Program-made: the position numbers and the translations under genes | NCBI GenBank assembly: GCA_029834535.1 | Contig: JAQMWT010000344.1 | Coordinates: forward strand, 124,001-188,000 | Direction of reading: 5' to 3' | Length of the DNA stretch: 64,000 nt | DNA from: Chrysophaeum taylorii | Taxonomy: Eukaryota > Sar > Pelagophyceae > Pelagomonadales > Pelagomonadaceae | The notes under the pieces: generated by a model | Told to the model about the DNA's origin: nothing | Databases searched by the model: none | The model's input: the letters and a program-made list of their open reading frames with translations, nothing else | Shown here: positions 43,914-56,955 of the stretch, piece after piece | Position numbering within the stretch: position 1 is the stretch's first letter | Layout of the letters: each line of letters starts with the position of its first letter

Positions 43914-46900
43914 ATGGCCGGTCCACGCCGGGACCGTTGCGCCGTGAAGATGCGCCGCGAACAATCACGACGAAAGGGACGGCCCAAGCGGTCGTCTCGG
44001 TCGCCAGATTACGCGCATGGGATACACACTGCGCACGAGCAGCGACTCATCGTCGGTGAATTGGTGTGTGTTTTCCTCGTCACCGTGTTGACGCCTCAAT
44101 CGAACAGGAACGGTTGCGTCGAGAGAACGAGGCTCTCCGTGCCGCCGCGTCAACGTCGAGCGCACTGGCAGCTCCATCGACGTTCGAGTACAATCGACAG
44201 CACGACGACACCGGAAGCGAGTATTCCGACGAACAAAGCGTGAGTACGATCGAAGCCGAACTTGCGACGCTCCGCGGAAACAATGCCCACCTGCGGGCTC
44301 AGCAGCAACAGCTCGTCGCGACGGTACATCAGTTCCGCGAAGACAGGCCCTTGACTTACGCGTCAGAAACGGCGACGAACATTTTGCGGCGACACTCCTC
44401 ATTTCGCGGGTCGAACGACTCGTTTAACTCGTGGCCGCTCATACCAGCAGGCGCGCAGCGGCCTGACTTGCCGACAACTGGCAACTCGTGGTTTGGCGTT
44501 GCCTCGGTGGCCGACCAATCATCGCCGCTGTTGAACCTGGTCCCGGCGTTGATTAGAGAAGGTGGCTATCTCTGGAAAGTGACGAACAGTATAGGGTCCG
44601 CGCCAAAGCGTCGATGGTTCCGCATCGCCATGCAAAGGCGAGATACGAAGAGTGAAATCGTGCTTACCTGGTGCGACCCTCGCACGGGAGTCGAAGATCT
44701 CGGCCTGGACTCGCCAACAGGATTCTCGTCGCCGGAGAGGCGTGTGCGGAGCTTCCGGCTGACGAATGTTGTCGAAGTTCGATTGGGCCACGAGACCCCC
44801 GCCTGGTGGATGCAAGCGAATGCCCGAAAGACACTTCCTGTGAAGGAACTTTGTTGGTCTCTCATTTCAGAGAAGGATGGTGGAACGCTCGATCTTGCTG
44901 CCGAATCGATTCAAGAGGCTAGGCTCTGGAAAGATACACTCCAAGTCATCGTAACGGAGCTCCAAAGCCAGCTACCAACGACGAGGAGGACGTGTAGTCC
45001 GACTTCCGGCGGACAAACGCGGCAACGAACGCCGAGTCTTACGACTTACAGCAAAGCTGATCGGCCGTGTGACACCTACGTTGGCTCGGGGGGCAGCGGC
45101 CAGTGCAGTTCGCAAGTCCAGCAACAACTCGCGACGGCCGTGCGCGAAGGTCGGACCAAAGAAGTGTCGAGGCTCTTTTCATCGCGCGTGATCAAGCCGG
45201 ACGAACTCATCGACCCCATGACGGGTGACACAGCGCTTTTGTTGGCGTGCCGCATCGGCTCGACAGAAATGATCAAGGTGGCGTTGGCACATGGAGCGCG
45301 CAACGATCCGCATCCAACATGGGGTTGCACGGCGCTTCAAATCGCCGTCGCTGGCAGTCACGTCGGCGCGGCTCGTGCACTTCTTGATGCTGCGGCTCCG
45401 AGCGGTGCTGACGCCGCCATCGTCAATCACGTCATTCTTGCGAGCGACACCAGCTCAAATTTTAGAAAGGGCGACGCCCCACTGCACGTTGCCGCGAGGC
45501 TGCTCGACCTCGCGATGGTCCAACTACTTCTAGAGCACCACGCGGATGTGCTCGCTCGGGATGAGCACGGATGCACGCCCGCCCACGTCGCAATCGAGGC
45601 GGCCCACGATCGCGCATTCGACGTGGTGGCGTTGCTCCTCGATGGCGCGAGCGACGAACTGGTTGACTCAAGGGACGACGCCGGTGGAGACGGTCTTCTG
45701 CATGTCGCCGCCCGGTCTGGAGCACGCCGATGCGTCGAACTTCTGGTGCAAGCCGCGGCGAATACAACGGCACAAAACAAGGCAGGAGAAACTCCACGCC
45801 AAACAGCAATCCGATCTGGCAAGTACGAAATCGCCGGAATCATTCGCGGCTATGAAACCAATCCGGGACGCGGAGATGAATCCGCCGAGCGGACCTCCGT
45901 CAAGACTAATGTCATTCAGGTTGGGTCGGCGACTCGCGATGATTCGGTTCTCCGCGCTCATGCCAAAGGTCGCATCAATTCCCGGTTAGCAAGCAAAGCC
46001 CGGGTCTTCCCTGATTGTAGCAACAGCGAGGCTACTCTTGCCGAGGCTACTCTTGCCCCAGCTCCGTTGCGAATGGACCGAAGCTACTGCTCTGACAGTG
46101 AACCCCGGAGCCCGTCGAACAATCCGCGGCAAGATACGCAGAAATCGTCACCAAAGTCGCCAAAACCACGCCGAGGTATCAGCTTCGATTCTACGAGTGA
46201 CGCATACTTGCAGGACATCCCAACGAACAGCGTCGAAGTGCGCGAGATGATCGCATCACCAATCGCGTCGTCCGCCGAGGGCCGCACATGGGCTACACCC
46301 CAAGAGTCGCCCGAAGCGGTGTCACCGCCGCCACTTCGCCAGAACGTTGAGCAGACCTACGCCCCACCGTCCGTGTTGTATAGCGACTCCGAATTCTACA
46401 CGCCAGATGGTGAGCAGTGGATGCAACTATATTGCGAAGAGGAGCAGTATCCGTACTTCTTGCATTTGTCGACCGGACATACGCAGTGGCTTGATCCACG
46501 TTCGCCCAACGGCCAGCTTCATCAAGGCCTGGTTCCAGACAATGCAATATTTGTTCAGGCCATGGCATCTTCGCCCGTAGCCGAAACGAAGGTACCAGAC
46601 ACTCGACATAAGCCCGCTGCGGACGTGGGTCGCATAAATATGGCGTCTGGGCCGACCGACGACGCGGCTGTCGTCGCTTCCAACAGCAGTCAAGACAATC
46701 GCACGCAGCGACGGAGCCTGTCCGGTGGCCCGATTGCCACCGCCGTTGACATTTTCACCGTGGCCGGTGGAAAGCGGGCTCCGTCGCCATCCCGGTCGAA
46801 ATCGAATGGAGACGGAAGTATGGCGCAAGATGCCCGATCACACCAGCCTGATATATCTACGTGCTCGAAATCGTCCGACATATTGTCGAATGAAGCATTG

Positions 46901-47545
46901 TCGCCGAAGGACGTGGGAGAGTCAAAGCGCGCTCGATGCAGGCTGACTGACGACTCGAGCGAGAAGAGCGACGCGCACTGTGGTAGTAGCAGCCACGCCC
47001 TTCAAAGCTACCCATCTTTCTCAAGTATCTTGACGCGTGACGAGTCTCGCGACGAGTACGATGAGGAAGAGGAGGATGACGACGACCTGAGTCGAGAAGC
47101 CAGTTCCAACGGCGCCGGGGTCTGCGGCGAAATCTCCCCTCTTAAGCGAATCGAGACCGATGAGCAGCTTATGGACGCGCTCGGAGATATATTATTGGAT
47201 GACAGTGACACGATGAATGACGAAGAGAACGAAGAACCACTTCACGACGCTGCATCATCTGTCCAAGAAGCCACTGAGTCGCAGCCACACTTTTCTCGTG
47301 CACCGAACTTGAGTCAGAACCAGAGGGAGAAGTTCCCTTCACAACAGATACCGTCGGAGCCTCAACTACCCACTGATGATGGTGAGGTTGATCGTTGTCA
47401 CCAGATTGTCGAGCCAGCGACCCCGCGGACGTCTGTCGAGCCGACGACTCCGCGGACATCATCTGTCGGCAAGACCCCCGCTCCAGAAGGCCGGTTATTG
47501 GAGAGATTCCCACGCGGGGCGCCGTCCAACGGCATTCGCAATTAA
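43914..47545 (+). CDS. PH-ankyrin-WW domain protein (2 exons)
   Basis: The 3.4-kb main exon has no ATG near its 5' end, so a first exon 43914-44063 joined by a 44-nt phase-0 intron to 44108 is proposed, giving 1195 aa; this start is less certain than the rest. Domains: basic N-terminus running into a short coiled coil (GELERLRRENEALRAAA); PH domain about 199-334 (EGGYLWKVTNS, KRRWFRIAM, W at the end); ankyrin repeats about 390-631 (GCTALQIAVAGSHVGAARAL, APLHVAARLLDLAMVQLLLE, GLLHVAARSGARRCVELLVQ); WW domain about 814-848 (WMQLY...YFLHLSTGHTQWLDP). The C-terminus is disordered with acidic and TPRTS-type repeats. PH suggests phosphoinositide membranes; ankyrin and WW bind proteins, so it is a scaffold. 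No enzyme domain. Confidence 0.82.
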
Positions 47546-47931: not shown

Positions 47932-49056
47932 TCAGAAGACCCCGAAGAATGTGGTGACGGCGAAAACCAGGAAAAGAACGCCGGCGATGAGACTTACGCC
48001 TTTCTCGGAGACGTACTTGGAAATAAAGGAGCCGCCAAGGACCGCAATGCCGGTAGCCAAACCGTGGCCGGTACAAGCGCCAATGGCAACGACGTACGGA
48101 TTTTGCGCGGCCGAGAGCGCGATGGTTGAAATCTGGGACCGGTCGCCAATTTCGGCTGCCACAGTCAACGCGAAGGCTTCGCTCGCGAGGGCAACAGCCT
48201 TGCCGCGAGTTCGTTCAATGACCGAACCTTTCCTGAGTATGAGATCACGCACAGACAGTAGCACAAAGCGCACGCTAGCTCTTCTTCAGCGGACTTGAGC
48301 TCTTCCTCCAGGCCGTCGTCGGTGTCAGACGCTAGAGCGCCCGTGATGGATTTTATGCCGAAATAGACGAACGAGGCAATAGCGACGTAGTCGTCGACAG
48401 GGTAACCTCCGGTGAAAGAGTCTGGCACAGCGTGGAATATCTGACCGATGACGACCGAAATGATCGTCATAAGCACGAGCGCAAGGAAGGCGCCTTGTGT
48501 GCACGTCTCACGCGTTTCGAACCAACGCACCAACGAACGTAATGACCTACGACGAGTCAGTCGGCGACACGGCGGGACACGGCCGTACCCTCGAGGCGCG
48601 CGCGGCAAGGATCGACGCCTGCATCGTTCCTCACGTGTGTGTCACATGGCACTGTACAATAAAGAAGGTCTTGTCCCCGATTTCCGAGAGGAAGATCAGC
48701 GATGTCGCCTGCACGAACGCCTGGATGAGCCCGCCGTCGACCGCCACGAGCGTTGACGGCTCCAAGGCCGCCGCCGACGCCTGAAGGGCGCAAGATGTGA
48801 TGTTAATAAGAGACGACCTCACGGCGGTTGGGGTCAACAACGCAAGCGCCGGCACGATGCCAATACCGGCACGCTTGACCTTAAAGCGCCTTGGCGCCTC
48901 CGACTGTTTTGCGAAAGAAGCAACAGGCTCGTCGCTTAGACTCGACGTGACTCGCGGGGTTCCCATCGATCGTCCGACAGCTGACGGCACGCTTCTCAGA
49001 CCACATGCCGACTGCCACAGCCAGAGAGACGCGATCCACCCAACGCGACGATGCAT
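47932..49056 (-). CDS. TMEM165/Gdt1/PAM71-type cation transporter (5 exons)
   Basis: Exons 49056-48658, 48618-48589 (30 nt), 48546-48531 (16 nt), 48493-48274 and 48232-47932 give 321 aa; introns are only 39, 42, 37 and 41 nt. The frame closes only with this splicing and yields a continuous family match: SEIGDKTFFIASILAARASR, VITFVGAFLALVLMTIISVV, GYPVDDYVAIASFVYFG, then AEIGDRSQISTIALSA. Both diagnostic ExGD(K/R)(T/S) motifs are present (125-130 and 249-254), one per inverted half of a six-helix transporter. Relatives move Mn2+/Ca2+ into the Golgi or the plastid thylakoid. The N-terminus (MHRRVGWIASLWLWQSACG) looks like a signal sequence and the next 80 residues could be a transit region, so a Golgi or plastid membrane is plausible. 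Start at the ATG at 49056. Confidence 0.9.
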
Positions 49057-49392
49057 CACGTCGCGATTTCAACTTTGGTACCGTTCAACGGAAGCAAACC
49101 ATCTTCAAGGTTTTGTGACGTGGAAAGTATCCTACCACCTCGTTATCACAACATCGTGACTGACACCACACCCTATCCGATTATTTAAATAACAGCGGAT
49201 AGCGTGCATCTAAAGATTGAGCGCACCCGCAGATGGTGATGACCGCGCTCGCGTGGAGACCTTTCACGCGGAGGCTGCCCAGAACACGACTACGTTGACA
49301 ACGGGGTTTTGACGGCAGGTCGAGACACCGAGAGGGTGGACTTCGAGGAGACGAGCTTCGACACGGTTATCACAACATAGGAGATTCCAAAA
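49057..49392. other. Divergent promoter region
   Basis: A 336-bp spacer between the Gdt1-type gene (-) and the C2/EF-hand gene (+), two genes with a calcium/manganese theme. No other coding signal. Confidence 0.5.
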
Positions 49393-51963
49393 ATGTCTGG
49401 ACAAGGATCTCCACCGAGAGGACCGCCTCCTAGAGGTCCTCCGCCCAAAGGACCACCACCGAGAGGTTCGTATTCCAGCGTTCTTTGTCCCTGCCACGAG
49501 ACTGATGACGACTTACGTGATCATCGACAGGACCCCCGCCGCGTGGCGCAAACCGGTGCCATTGTGATTTATCCTGGTTGTTTTCGTACATCGAGATTGT
49601 TGCGCAAACGTCGGTTGGCGGACCGCTGGTCGTGGTCTTTTCAACACATTGACATTGTGGGTGCAGGCCCCCCACCCGGAGGTCCGCCTCCCAATGCCGG
49701 CGCGGCAAGAGTGCCACCGCCGAGAGGTTAGTCTGGAAACAGCAAGTTCACACGAGCGACTTTATATTCTTAGGACCACCACCGCGAGGTGAGCTAGGGC
49801 ACGCGGGTAACTCGGTGCATCAATTGTCATGCAGGACCTCCACCTCGCGGACCACCACCGTCGACCGGAGCAGCGAGAGGGCCGCCACCTAGAGGTGAGA
49901 GTCGAAACGATGTTGCTATCGGCAGCAGCCGCAATTTATATTGCTTCCAGGCCCGCCGCCACGAGGTGCGCGACGGCGCATCGCCTTCTGCGTTACAAAA
50001 AAAAGGATTAGGTCCGCCGCCGCGAGGACCACCACCTGCTGGAGCTGCACCAAGAGGGCCGCCTCCAAGGGGTCAGTCATGGTTTTGTTGCAAACGTTCC
50101 CGACGAGATATCTTTGCTGCTCAGGTCCTCCACCACGTGGTACGAAATTGAGCACCAGATGTTTTTTTTCAGTATGAGCATTTCGGCTTACTCTCAGGCC
50201 CGCCGCCGCGTGGCCCTCCGCCCACTGGTGCGGCGAGAGGCCCACCGCCGAGAGGCCCACCGCCCCGAGGTGAACAGCTCATGCCCCCTTTCATCGAAAC
50301 AGTACGTGCGCATCTCTTTAGGTCCGCCACCGCGGGGGCCGCCACCGCCAAGCGGAGTACCGCGGGGACCACCGCCAGGAGCACCTCGAGGTGCAATCGC
50401 GTGCCTTTTCCCTCGAGCTCAATAGCCATCGCAGGTCCACCACCACGGGGTGCACCGCCGAGAGGTGTGGGCGTGGTCGTATGTCAATCACCAAACCTAA
50501 TCGATCGCCGCAGGACCGCCCCCGAGGGGTCCTCCGCCGAGAGGTCCGGTGCCTCCGCCTTCAACGGGAGCCATGGTCCCTCGTCCGCCCGTCGCACCAG
50601 TGCTGCCGAAGTTTGGACAGCTGAATGTTAACGTTCTGCGGGGAGTCGCTTTGAAAGCCGGCCAGTCGATGTATGGCAAGGCGGATCCGTACGTCAAGCT
50701 GACGGTCGGAACGCAAGTTTTCTCTTCGAACCCGCACGCGGGCGGTGGCAAAGACCCCGTCTGGAATGCCGAGCACATCTTTGAGATTTCCACCGAGAAA
50801 GAAATGTTGATGGAGATCTACGACAAGGAGTCGGTTGGCAATGATAAGTACATGGGCCACGCAAGAGTGGGTATCGTCGACTGGATCGCCGCCGGCAAGT
50901 TCTCTGGGGACATAGAGATCACCGACAAGAGCGAACGGCCAGTCGGGAAGGTGAGCGTGAGCGCAACATTCAGTCGACCAGGGCAGCAACAAGCTGGCGC
51001 ACTAGTGCCGGCCGGGAATGAGACCGGAGGAGAAATCGTCGCGCAGTCTTCGGTCGCGGAGAGCGCGTCCGCCACCACCGAGAGAAAGCAGCAACAGCCG
51101 GCGCGCGATCCCAATGGAAAATTTACCGATGAGGAAATTTGGGAGGCGTTCACGGCCTTCGATCTCGACAAAAACAACTTTGTTGGGGCGGCCGAGATTC
51201 GACACGTCCTCATCAACATTGGCGAGCAAGTCACCGACGACGAGGTCGACGAGATGATCCGGATGATCGACCGTGACGGCGACGGCCAGGTTTCCTTCGC
51301 CGAGTTTTTTGAGATGGTCACGGGTGGTCGTCAGCCACCGCCCGGTTTGGGCGCTGGCGGGCGAATGGGCGCACCCGGGGCGGCGAGCGCTGTGCCGCCG
51401 ACGGGCCAGTCGGTGGTTGCGGCACGCAACGCCAAGAAGGCCGCGCTCGACGAATTTGCTCGAGACAGCAACCTCAAGCCGGAGTCAATAAAAAAGGCCT
51501 ACAAGCGCTTCCAGGCGACCGATAAGGACAAGAGCGGCATGATCGACTACACCGAGTTCTGCGAGATTCTGCAGGTAGACCCGAGTCCGCAGGGCGAACG
51601 CCTCTTCCAGCTGTTCGACTACGACAAGTCGGGTCAGATCGACGTGCGCGAGTTCATGATCGCTCTCTCAAACTTCACCGGCGCCGGCAAGGACGACAAG
51701 CTCAAGTTTGCGTTCATGATTTTTGTACGTTTTGTGTCGTGCATGTCGTTAGTGATGCGTCTACGTAGGATGAAGATGGCAATGGCGTCATCACCAAGGG
51801 CGAGCTTACTCGAATTCTTCGAGCAAACCACATGGCGTCCTCCGATGCTGAAGTCGCGCGGAAAGCAGACACGATCATGCAGCAAGCAGACAAGGATGGT
51901 GATGGAGTCGTTACTTTCGATGAATTCGTCATTGTCAGCAAGAAGTTCCCGAACATCTTGTGA
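49393..51963 (+). CDS. Pro-rich C2 / six-EF-hand calcium protein with micro-exon array (13 exons)
   Basis: Exons: 49393-49465, 49531-49545, 49667-49726, 49774-49788, 49835-49894, 49951-49965, 50012-50071, 50125-50139, 50198-50269, 50322-50390, 50435-50464, 50514-51724, 51769-51963; 629 aa. The first eleven junctions are all phase 1, inside the Gly codon of PPPRG; the last is phase 0. Residues 1-190 are (G)PPPRG repeats. A C2 domain follows (about 195-320, [25 protein letters not shown]). Six EF-hand loops start at 378 ([12 protein letters not shown]), 414 ([12 protein letters not shown]), 498 ([12 protein letters not shown]), 530 ([12 protein letters not shown]), 566 ([12 protein letters not shown]) and 606 ([12 protein letters not shown]); the last four resemble a calcineurin-B-like unit. 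It likely senses Ca2+ at membranes, with the Pro linker offering SH3/WW/profilin sites. The first EF loop is imperfect. The exon-2 donor is GC unless a 12-nt version ending 49542 is used. Confidence 0.88.
49531..50464 (+). repeat. Alternating 15-nt/60-nt exon array coding PPPRG modules
   Basis: Exons 2-8 measure 15, 60, 15, 60, 15, 60 and 15 nt; exons 9, 10 and 11 are 72, 69 and 30 nt. Each 15-nt exon codes PPPR plus split Gly codons; two of the 60-nt exons read PPPRGPPP(S/A)(T/G)GAARGPPPR or close to it. Introns are 44-65 nt except one of 121 nt, and share little sequence beyond splice sites. Confidence 0.85.
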
Positions 51964-52542
51964 GTAGGCGATTGTCGCTGACTTCCCATGCGCGCCCCCA
52001 GGTTCCCTGCGTACAATTCGAGCAAGTAGACGCGCACACCACGGCACATCCTCGTCTATCACCCAGCGCCTCTCGGATTTCGGACAACTCTCGCCAGTCT
52101 TCTGCAGCATTAGATTAACCTTAATCTCCGCGCTTCGACGGCGGTGGAACGCACGAGTGTTGCATCCAGAATTGCACGTAACATGTGTGTACAGCGCGCC
52201 ATTGGGATTTGGCGGCGCTCCATATGCACGTGTTTCACACCACCGATAGTAGTCCCGAGACAGTGGCCGGATTCTCGTCGTTGGTAAGTGCGCGGAAGCG
52301 TACATCGCGGGTTACTGCGCCTTGACGGACGACGGTGCCGTTGCCTCATGCCTCGTCGAGGTGAAGCCGCATTGTGCGCATTTTTTTGTGACGAAAAGGC
52401 GGAACTCAAAATTATGGCAAAAAAAATAGCCGGAACAGAGGAAGAGAGAATCATAAGGAAGAAAAATTGTAGAGAGCAACGCCTCAGCAGCAGCAGCAAG
52501 CTGCACAGGGAGAAAGAATCATGGGGGACTGCACCTTAGTCG

Positions 52543-55550: not shown

Positions 55551-56786
55551 TTATTGGGGCGTGACATCATGATTGAGCCAAGGTATGTATTTAAGGTCGC
55601 CCAATTCGCGGGGAAATAAGTATTGAACGGCGAAGAAGAAAAAGCCGAGAGCGAGACAGATAGATCCAACGGCGATATAGGCGATGGCAAGGACCTCGTT
55701 TTCAAAGCCAGAAGCCGTGGCGACGACGAGAAACTTTTTGCCGTCAAAGGCATGGACGTCCCAGTTGTTTTCGATCCGGAAGACGAGGCGGGTGCCGTCG
55801 TCGAGCGTAGAGGCGACGCGACCGTACAACTTTCTAAAGCGCGGGAGCGCGGCTGTCCGGAGCCAGACGGCGAAGTGTTCGCTGTTGACGCCCACGAGAG
55901 GCGAGATGACCTGCGGGAAGGTATGATAGAGGTACTGGTACTTGTCGACGCGATCGTAGTGGAAGACCACTCTCTCTCCCGAGTCGCACTTCCGCTCGTC
56001 GTAATAAGAACCCCTGCACACGTAGCCGTAGCACTCGTCGCCGAATTTCGAAAGGCCGTAGGCCGCGCAGGTGGAGGCCGCGCACTTGACGTTGGACAGG
56101 TAACTGCGGTTCCCAAAGCACGCGTCGTCGTCCGCCTCTTCCGTCGCGTACCGGGACCATTCGAAGCCTTCGGGTTGCTTGAGCACGTCCTTGACGTCGG
56201 TCCGCCAGGCGATTTTTTTTTCCTTGAGGCGCAGCCTACCGGGTTCGCTCAGCTCGATGACGTCGTTGAACAACGTATTCGGCACCAGGCCGCACGGGTT
56301 GAGGACGCGCGAAGAGTTCTCGTACAACTTCTCGCACCCGTCGTCTTTGAGCTCCTTCGACTCGAGATGCTCGCGGTTGTGGAGCTGGTTCCACTCCATC
56401 GATTGGACGTACGCCCGATGGTTTTGGAAAAAGTTATCGACCTCGTAGAACACGTGAACGGGCTCGCGCATTTTTTTTTTTATCTCCACCGTCACGTTAC
56501 AAACCGCGCCCGCGTCCGCCGTTTGGATCCGGCACCCCGACCGCTCCGAGGGCGTTCCGGCGCCGTCGTACTGCTCCCGGTACACGACGGCATCCCGCTG
56601 GCTGAACATCAACCCCACTCCCACGAAGATCGCCCCCGTCACCAAGAATGTTGAGATATACTCCTTCGGACCCCCAACGGGCGTCCACGCTTTCAGCCGC
56701 TGCTGCTTGGCATCAGTGTCTTCGGGCTTCTTCGACGGACCCTCGCTCACTTGCCCGCGTCGTCGTCGAGACAACAGCACCACCAT
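55551..56786 (-). CDS. CDC50/LEM3 family flippase subunit
   Basis: A 411-aa single-exon membrane protein from the ATG at 56786. Two transmembrane helices (about 43-61 and 366-391) flank a large extracytosolic domain, the standard CDC50 layout. Landmarks: FYEVDNFFQNHRAYVQS, NPCGLVPNTLFND and RIENNWDVHAFDGKKFLVVA (the last matches the family NNYPV-type region), plus Cys pairs for disulfides and N-glycosylation sequons. CDC50 proteins are obligate beta-subunits of P4-ATPases, which flip phospholipids to the cytosolic leaflet in Golgi, endosomes or plasma membrane. A Cys-bearing insert (about 220-260, ACFGNRSYLSNVKCAASTC) is larger than I recall in yeast or animal members. Confidence 0.9.
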   Translation of the reverse strand: MVVLLSRRRRGQVSEGPSKKPEDTDAKQQRLKAWTPVGGPKEYISTFLVTGAIFVGVGLMFSQRDAVVYREQYDGAGTPSERSGCRIQTADAGAVCNVTVEIKKKMREPVHVFYEVDNFFQNHRAYVQSMEWNQLHNREHLESKELKDDGCEKLYENSSRVLNPCGLVPNTLFNDVIELSEPGRLRLKEKKIAWRTDVKDVLKQPEGFEWSRYATEEADDDACFGNRSYLSNVKCAASTCAAYGLSKFGDECYGYVCRGSYYDERKCDSGERVVFHYDRVDKYQYLYHTFPQVISPLVGVNSEHFAVWLRTAALPRFRKLYGRVASTLDDGTRLVFRIENNWDVHAFDGKKFLVVATASGFENEVLAIAYIAVGSICLALGFFFFAVQYLFPRELGDLKYIPWLNHDVTPQ

Positions 56787-56955
56787 CCCCTTTTACCTTC
56801 TCCAACGCCTCACCGTCATCATCTTCTTCTTGCCCCCACTTAATAATAAATAATATATAAGTGGGTTCCGTGCTGCCGATTCCGTGCGGCCAACTTTTTC
56901 TCATTTTTTTCGTCTTTCTATTAAATTCAGTTTGTGTTAGTAGCGTCCCAGCGAA

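What the first reader, a model, noticed from the sequence alone, without database searches (positions are those of the whole stretch)
49393..50513. Array of symmetric phase-1 micro-exons, alternating 15 and 60 nt, encoding a PPPRG linker
Eleven junctions in about 1.1 kb all split the Gly codon of a PPPRG unit, and exons 2-8 run 15-60-15-60-15-60-15 nt. Every exon from 2 to 11 is a multiple of three, so any combination can be skipped or kept in frame, giving a splice-tunable Pro-rich linker on a calcium-sensing C2/EF-hand protein. The repeated AG|GT in the codons for RG is itself a proto-splice site, so the array could have grown by duplication of exon-intron pairs or by repeated intron gain in a repeat. 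The introns no longer resemble each other, which argues against very recent duplication. I know of no described gene with this layout.
Basis: partly seen in the sequence, partly recalled or inferred. Interest (0 to 1): 0.88.

Follow-up and report, generated by a model that had tools for sequence, protein, structure and literature searches.

The report
Phase-1 micro-exon array encoding PPPRG linker
A calcium-sensor gene of the marine alga Chrysophaeum taylorii appears to have its proline-rich arm cut into many tiny, frame-preserving exons, probably through old copying of exon-intron units; the layout resembles known micro-exon genes, and whether the arm is varied by splicing is untested.

Summary
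The layout is real as sequence. The window is Chrysophaeum taylorii (Pelagophyceae) and the gene is NCBI CTAYLR_000215: PPPRG linker, C2 domain, EF-hands. Eleven predicted introns fall in the linker, all phase 1, each splitting the Gly codon of an R-G pair; exons 2-9 are 15-60-15-60-15-60-15-72 nt. Random choice of R-G sites gives such alternation in 14 of 200,000 draws. The deposited model, from an annotation that used RNA-seq, fits five of these junctions but reads the exons in the wrong frame and drops the start. Orthologues, including an Aureoumbra transcript, carry the linker in the PPPRG frame. Weak point: exon 2 needs a poor GC donor. Best explanation: ancient tandem duplication of a 25-residue, two-intron unit followed by saturation; introns 3, 5 and 7 keep a faint likeness, but introns 2, 4, 6 and 8 none. 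The splice-tunable reading is possible but has no isoform data behind it; retaining any single linker intron truncates the protein (11 of 11), while 4 of 10 adjacent intron pairs can be retained with the frame open. The layout is not unprecedented: schistosome micro-exon genes consist mostly of 15-bp exons, usually multiples of three.

The parts
49393..49465 (+). Exon 1: [25 protein letters not shown], start codon and first linker units
   Evidence: orthologues with a linker also start MSG, MSA or MSS
49531..49545 (+). Exon 2 (15 nt, PPPRG); uncertain, followed by a GC donor
49667..49726 (+). Exon 3 (60 nt)
49774..49788 (+). Exon 4 (15 nt micro-exon, PPPRG)
49835..49894 (+). Exon 5 (60 nt)
   Evidence: its 3' junction fits deposited model P0001
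49951..49965 (+). Exon 6 (15 nt micro-exon)
   Evidence: both junctions fit P0001
50012..50071 (+). Exon 7 (60 nt)
   Evidence: both junctions fit P0001
50125..50139 (+). Exon 8 (15 nt micro-exon)
   Evidence: both junctions fit P0001
50198..50269 (+). Exon 9 (72 nt, unit with one extra PPPRG)
   Evidence: its 5' junction fits P0001
50322..50390 (+). Exon 10 (69 nt)
50435..50464 (+). Exon 11 (30 nt)
   Evidence: its 3' junction fits P0001; unnamed pelagophyte-like ORF P0045 seems to read through an intron just before the same peptide
50514..51724 (+). Exon 12: end of linker, C2 domain, two EF-hand pairs
51769..51959 (+). Exon 13: third EF-hand pair
52002..52029 (+). Exon 14: FPAYNSSK and stop codon 52027-52029
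   Evidence: matches the end of P0001

Best explanation
This is the 5' half of a conserved ochrophyte gene for a calcium sensor (PPPRG-rich linker, C2, EF-hands). In the C. taylorii lineage the linker consists of about four copies of a 25-residue unit, [[20 protein letters not shown]|], each with two phase-1 introns at the same two of its R-G sites. The array most likely grew by ancient tandem duplication of a segment of 15-nt exon + intron + 60-nt exon + intron (174 and 177 bp in the two middle units, 197 and 243 bp in the outer ones), seeded by phase-1 linker introns older than the array. Synonymous and intron sequence then diverged almost completely while the peptide period and intron positions held. 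In the cell I expect the exons to be joined in most transcripts by intron definition across 44-65 nt introns. The repeat lattice makes the region tolerant of exon loss: skipping any of exons 2-11 keeps the frame, and so would use of another R-G site of the same phase, whereas keeping a single intron shifts the frame and loses the C2/EF-hand part. Linker length would then be mainly an evolutionary variable, with splice variation possible but secondary. Shown here: coordinates, phases, lengths, frame conservation, outcome of skips and retentions on paper. Inferred: splicing itself, duplication origin, constitutive inclusion, and the linker's role as a multivalent Pro/Arg tether.
For: The model translates without a stop to 637 aa. 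Orthologues have the linker in this frame, including P0006 from Aureoumbra lagunensis; 27 of the 183 proteins retrieved carry three or more linker motifs. The deposited protein, from an annotation that used RNA-seq and protein evidence (PMC10366177, passages), fits junctions 49894|49951, 49965|50012, 50071|50125, 50139|50198 and 50464|50514 (exact borders resolved by me from the AG/GT signals), so two 15-nt exons and one 60-nt exon were found independently. Regular site choice: 7e-5. Introns 3, 5 and 7 rank 1st to 3rd of 165 triples of linker introns in mutual similarity, depending on how much of the splice sites is stripped. Synonymous codons between units are saturated, 20 of 105 identical against 29.4 expected, so loss of intron likeness is expected. 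AG context does not separate occupied from empty R-G sites (8 of 11 against 8 of 14, p 0.68). Retention of any one of the 11 linker introns stops translation after 50-219 aa; 12 of 12 skip combinations tested end in the normal C terminus.
Against: No transcript of this locus was examined. Introns 2, 4, 6 and 8, which should be equally homologous, show no mutual similarity (292-301 of 330 subsets score as high or higher), and adding intron 9 to 3, 5, 7 weakens the signal (5, 53 or 62 of 330 by setting). Allowing for four groups tested, the triple result is about 0.02-0.07. Over all pairs, 4 of 78 reach p below 0.05, as chance would give. Exon 2's donor is GC in poor context. Four of 10 adjacent intron pairs can be retained together with the frame open to the end, so 'retention always destroys' holds for single introns only. 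The deposited model disagrees elsewhere: it starts at 49829 inside intron 4, reads the linker exons in another frame, keeps intron 10, cuts exon 9 short and removes about 50548-50599. The 25-residue unit was not matched in any of 183 retrieved proteins by a strict pattern; a looser one touched three, P0063, P0088 and P0102 (P0001 is out of frame there), so its age cannot be bracketed.
Confidence: 0.6

Rival explanations
1. Repeated independent intron gain: a coding PPPRG repeat offers many AG|G proto-splice sites and introns were inserted one by one, by mobile introns (introners) or another route.
For: Introns lie only at R-G sites. Introners are reported from Aureococcus (PMC9860276, passages), which I recall to be another pelagophyte. 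Introns are nearly unalike.
Against: No multi-copy intron family was found: the 1,121-base array matched only itself and a 36-base piece of exon 12 (a search that may skip very common words), and 22-base cores of introns 1, 2, 5 and 7 with up to 3 mismatches found no intron-like copies (intron 1 had one other hit with 3 mismatches, not looked at further; intron 5 had eight, all from one unrelated repeat whose likeness ends with about the 22 bases). The other seven linker introns were not tested this way. Random R-G sites would rarely give the alternation (7e-5).
Confidence: 0.22
2. Splice-tunable linker: exons 2-11 are regulated cassettes and the cell sets linker length by exon skipping. It can hold together with the duplication origin.
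For: Exons 2-11 are symmetric and 12 of 12 skips tested keep the frame. Comparable arrays in schistosome micro-exon genes and the elastin gene are alternatively spliced (PMC10526429 and PMC7947355, passages).
Against: Symmetry follows from shared phase and needs no regulation. Introns of 44-65 nt favour intron definition, where errors give retention rather than skipping (recalled). No isoform evidence either way.
Confidence: 0.2
3. Exon 2 is not an exon: introns 1 and 2 are one 201-nt intron, or the 201 nt are kept as coding sequence. This would leave exons 3-12 as described.
For: GC donor with weak context and a 121-nt intron 2. The frame is open from the start codon through 49466-49666 into exon 3, and keeping introns 1 and 2 together gives 699 aa.
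Against: The 15 nt encode a perfect PPPRG behind a CAG acceptor in the right phase, as at exons 4, 6 and 8; the read-through peptide matches no Pfam family.
Confidence: 0.35
4. Introns arose by conversion of coding repeat to intron (intronization, or tandem duplication of an AGGT-bearing exon).
For: AGGT repeats can offer both splice sites, a recognised route (PMC3443670, passages).
Against: Introns hold almost no repeat remnant: CCNCC occurs once in the 11 linker introns, and GC is 49.8% against 74.6% in exons.
Confidence: 0.05

Closest known systems
Schistosoma micro-exon genes (MEG)
   Same: 10-20 very short exons, in the vast majority 15 bp, mostly multiples of three, alternatively spliced, hard for automatic annotation (PMC10526429, passages)
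   Different: MEG introns run 0.1-5 kb and the proteins are secreted; here introns are 44-65 nt (one 121), the exons encode one repeated motif, and the protein is a C2/EF-hand sensor
Elastin gene (ELN)
   Same: Low-complexity repeats, one domain per exon, two kinds of domain, alternative splicing (PMC7947355, passages); a common exon phase is recalled, not read
   Different: Lengthy introns; extracellular matrix protein; exon sizes recalled to be larger
Titin PEVK exons (recalled, no call)
   Same: In-frame Pro-rich exon array that sets the length of a flexible segment
   Different: Unrelated protein with regulated splicing, as recalled
Introner introns of Aureococcus and others
   Same: Introns multiplied within a lineage, splice sites carried or co-opted at the target (PMC9860276, passages)
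   Different: No multi-copy intron family detected from this array
Micro-exon genes of rice
   Same: Micro-exons in a non-animal lineage (PMC6600660, passages and abstract start)
   Different: Micro-exons spread over many genes; no repeat-encoding array appears in the passages I saw
Ochrophyte PPPRG-C2-EF-hand proteins (named calmodulin, putative calcineurin subunit B or Ca2-binding protein in databases)
   Same: Orthologues by sequence: 62-83% identity for the 119 other hits listed of 515
   Different: The strict 25-residue unit pattern was matched in none of 183 retrieved proteins

Membership tests
Ochrophyte C2/EF-hand calcium sensor with PPPRG linker | C2 domain and EF-hands above curated cut-offs | tested here: met
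   PF00168 49.9 bits and PF13499 91.1 bits in exon 12; PF00036 45.5 bits in exon 13
Ochrophyte C2/EF-hand calcium sensor with PPPRG linker | PPPRG-rich N-terminus in the same frame with a similar start | tested here: met
   P0006, P0027, P0036, P0063 and others
Micro-exon gene (general class) | Several symmetric micro-exons in one gene | tested here: met
   three 15-nt exons with GT-AG introns on both sides, plus exon 2; predicted from DNA, two of them also in the deposited model
Schistosome MEG superfamily | Secreted MEG protein with introns of 0.1-5 kb | tested here: not met
   introns 42-121 nt; C2/EF-hand protein
Regulated cassette array (elastin, titin type) | Alternative exon usage in transcripts | not testable with these tools
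   RNA-seq reads not held
Introner-derived introns | Multiple near-identical intron copies in the genome | tested here: inconclusive
   none found for the whole array or for cores of introns 1, 2, 5, 7; seven linker introns not tested by pattern, and diverged copies would be missed
Tandem exon-intron duplication array | Homology between repeated introns | tested here: inconclusive
   introns 3, 5, 7 rank 1-3 of 165 triples; introns 2, 4, 6, 8 show none

The most novel reading that the evidence does not exclude
A repeat lattice in which real and potential R-G splice sites lie in one phase, so that splicing noise or regulation can only add or remove in-frame linker units; the cell could use it to vary the reach and valency of a calcium sensor's Pro/Arg arm. 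Phase-1 Gly introns seem to recur in linkers of distant ochrophytes, which would make this gene a natural series for telling intron gain from exon-intron duplication.
Probability: 0.22. Interest if true: 0.7.

Novelty: new variant of a known kind. Interest (0 to 1): 0.45.

Why it matters
It ties a coding repeat, intron phase and exon size together in one compact algal locus and offers a testable case for how exon-intron units multiply. In practical terms the deposited protein has a wrong N-terminus, and several other ochrophyte models look out of frame in the same linker, so the linker is being lost from databases.

Tried and rejected
Searched the genome for further 15-nt PPPRG-type micro-exons with one pattern: 4 matches in 70.8 Mb, all in this gene (exons 4, 6 and 8 and the start of exon 3); the reversed control pattern had one match. 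Exon 2 is not matched because of its GC donor, so the pattern would miss such exons elsewhere. Looked for relatives' DNA with P0001 as query: genome contigs gave 18 pattern matches, none encoding a relative; viral contigs gave none. Intron positions in relatives could therefore only be guessed from protein letters. Looked for a full-length paralogue: none found; the next match is an EF-hand stretch at 34% identity. Proto-splice context as sole cause: not supported. Intronization: not supported. Introner copies: not found.

Read-through ORFs: among 183 proteins retrieved (120 listed of 515, 14, 49 more) I picked by eye 14 whose non-linker start abuts the linker. Eleven (P0011, P0038, P0043, P0045, P0048, P0059, P0071, P0102, P0130, P0133, P0136) fit a YAG|G acceptor splitting a Gly codon in phase 1; P0058, P0134 and P0151 do not clearly fit. 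Out-of-frame or unclear models (P0001, P0014, P0015, P0031, P0052, P0056, P0079, P0142, P0182) were set aside. I chose the borders at a Gly myself and the residues that fit are common ones, so this is weak evidence.

Papers: the listings (0 papers; 2; 8 of 12 listed; 8 of 41 listed) showed no title or abstract start describing this gene or a PPPRG micro-exon array; no search was aimed at micro-exons in algae as such, and the library is open-licence only.

Full report
Identity. The window lies in a 70.8 Mb genome of 697 contigs. The C2/EF-hand part of the gene is identical to Chrysophaeum taylorii hypothetical protein CTAYLR_000215 (P0001, 100% over the query stretch, residues 192-637), so the organism is the pelagophyte alga C. 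taylorii. The genome paper says coding sequences were annotated with RNA-seq and protein evidence (PMC10366177, passages; outline and abstract). Six program names that I sought were not in its text.

Observation. A 14-exon model from 49393 to the stop at 52027-52029 gives an uninterrupted 637-aa protein. Eleven introns lie in the linker, all phase 1, all in the Gly codon of an R-G pair. Exon lengths 2 to 11 are 15, 60, 15, 60, 15, 60, 15, 72, 69, 30. Ten introns are GT-AG; intron 2 is GC-AG and the longest (121 nt). Of 37 Gly codons in the linker 25 follow Arg, and all 11 introns are at those 25 (sites, chances). Choosing 11 of the 25 at random 200,000 times gave an alternating run of seven or more in 7e-5. 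Because all introns share one phase, exons divisible by three are automatic.

Is it spliced? Three indirect lines. First, the linker is in frame with the conserved C2 domain and orthologues have it, among them P0006 of Aureoumbra lagunensis (a source label is mmetsp, which I recall as a transcriptome collection), which starts MSGRPPPP and runs through PPPRG units into PKFG. Second, exon and intron composition differ sharply (74.6 and 49.8% GC). Third, the deposited protein fits introns 5, 6, 7, 8 and 11 at these positions. Its N-terminus is nonetheless wrong: it starts at an ATG at 49829 within intron 4, reads the exons in another frame, keeps intron 10, cuts exon 9 short and removes a stretch at the start of exon 12 whose counterpart is present in P0006.

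Origin. The spliced linker reads as four copies of a 25-residue unit with introns after residues 5 and 25 (29 residues in the fourth, which has an extra PPPRG), followed by degenerate copies. Starts of successive 15-nt exons, and of exon 10 after exon 8, lie 243, 177, 174 and 197 bp apart (coordinates). Between units, aligned same-residue codons agree in 20 of 105 cases against 29.4 expected: saturation. Introns are therefore expected to be unalignable, and they are as a set (4 of 78 pairs at p below 0.05, which is what chance gives). Introns 3, 5 and 7, which hold the same place in successive units, rank first to third of 165 triples, but introns 2, 4, 6 and 8, which should be equally related, show nothing, and intron 9 weakens its group. 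The case for duplication rests on the regular placement plus this faint and partial signal.

Mobile introns. The whole array matched only itself and a short piece of exon 12. As that search may skip common words, I also searched 22-base cores of four of the 11 linker introns (1, 2, 5, 7) with up to 3 mismatches. Introns 2 and 7 occur once; intron 1 has one other 3-mismatch hit, not followed up; intron 5 has eight, which are copies of one other repeat and whose likeness to intron 5 ends with about the 22 bases. This gives no sign of a young introner family; old or diverged ones are not excluded. Introns hold one CCNCC in all 11, so no repeat remnants to speak of.

Relatives. Read-through ORFs suggest phase-1 Gly introns in linkers of other ochrophytes (11 of 14 hand-picked). 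P0045, unnamed but pelagophyte-like, appears to share intron 10 yet reads continuously where C. taylorii has intron 11; P0133, likewise unnamed, appears to have an intron at the intron 11 place. This is inference from protein letters without DNA. The strict 25-residue unit pattern was not matched in the 183 retrieved proteins; a looser one touched three.

Mechanism. All 11 single retentions in the linker end translation after 50-219 aa; 12 of 12 skip combinations tested keep the normal end; 4 of 10 adjacent-pair retentions (1+2, 5+6, 6+7, 9+10) stay open to the end at 669-699 aa. No linker intron length is a multiple of three (chance about 1% by my arithmetic). The lattice tolerates exon loss, and single intron retention not at all. 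With introns this short, intron definition is likely (recalled), and the default expectation is full inclusion. Regulation of linker length is possible and untested. The protein part is a C2 domain and three EF-hand pairs; six loops look canonical to my eye. The solved chains listed (60 of 440) are headed by a calmodulin/calcineurin B fusion and then calmodulins. A Pro/Arg linker of this kind could bind WW or SH3 domains and be arginine-methylated; that is inference.

Novelty. The closest layout is the schistosome micro-exon gene, most of whose exons are 15 bp (PMC10526429, passages). The present case differs in its very short introns, in encoding a repeated motif and in lying on a conserved calcium sensor. 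I class it as a new variant of a known kind.

Noticed in passing
47932-49068, minus strand: Divergent neighbour: pieces of a GDT1-type divalent cation/proton antiporter (PF01169; best piece 81 bits, the other two at 22.8 and 20.6 below the cut-off of 27), head-to-head with the calcium-sensor gene.
   Followed up: partly
P0001 against 49393-50600: The deposited protein CTAYLR_000215 has a wrong N-terminus (out-of-frame linker, false start, false intron); models P0014, P0015, P0031, P0052, P0056 and P0079 look similarly out of frame in the linker.
   Followed up: partly
introns 1-11: None of the 11 linker intron lengths is a multiple of three, and the remainders run 2,1,2,1,2,1,2,1,1,2,1, so the two introns around each 15-nt exon sum to a multiple of three.
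   Followed up: partly
49393-49728: The frame from the start codon is open straight through intron 1, exon 2 and intron 2 into exon 3.
   Followed up: partly
G000 C3, C10, C67, C297, C335, C519, C544, C626 (L012-L019): A dispersed repeat, near-identical over at least 60 bases each side in several copies, shares 22 bases with 3 mismatches with intron 5 and little more.
   Followed up: partly
55551-56792, minus strand: CDC50/LEM3 family gene (PF03381, 198 bits).
   Followed up: no
44060-47545, plus strand: Open frame of 1161 aa with ankyrin repeats.
   Followed up: no
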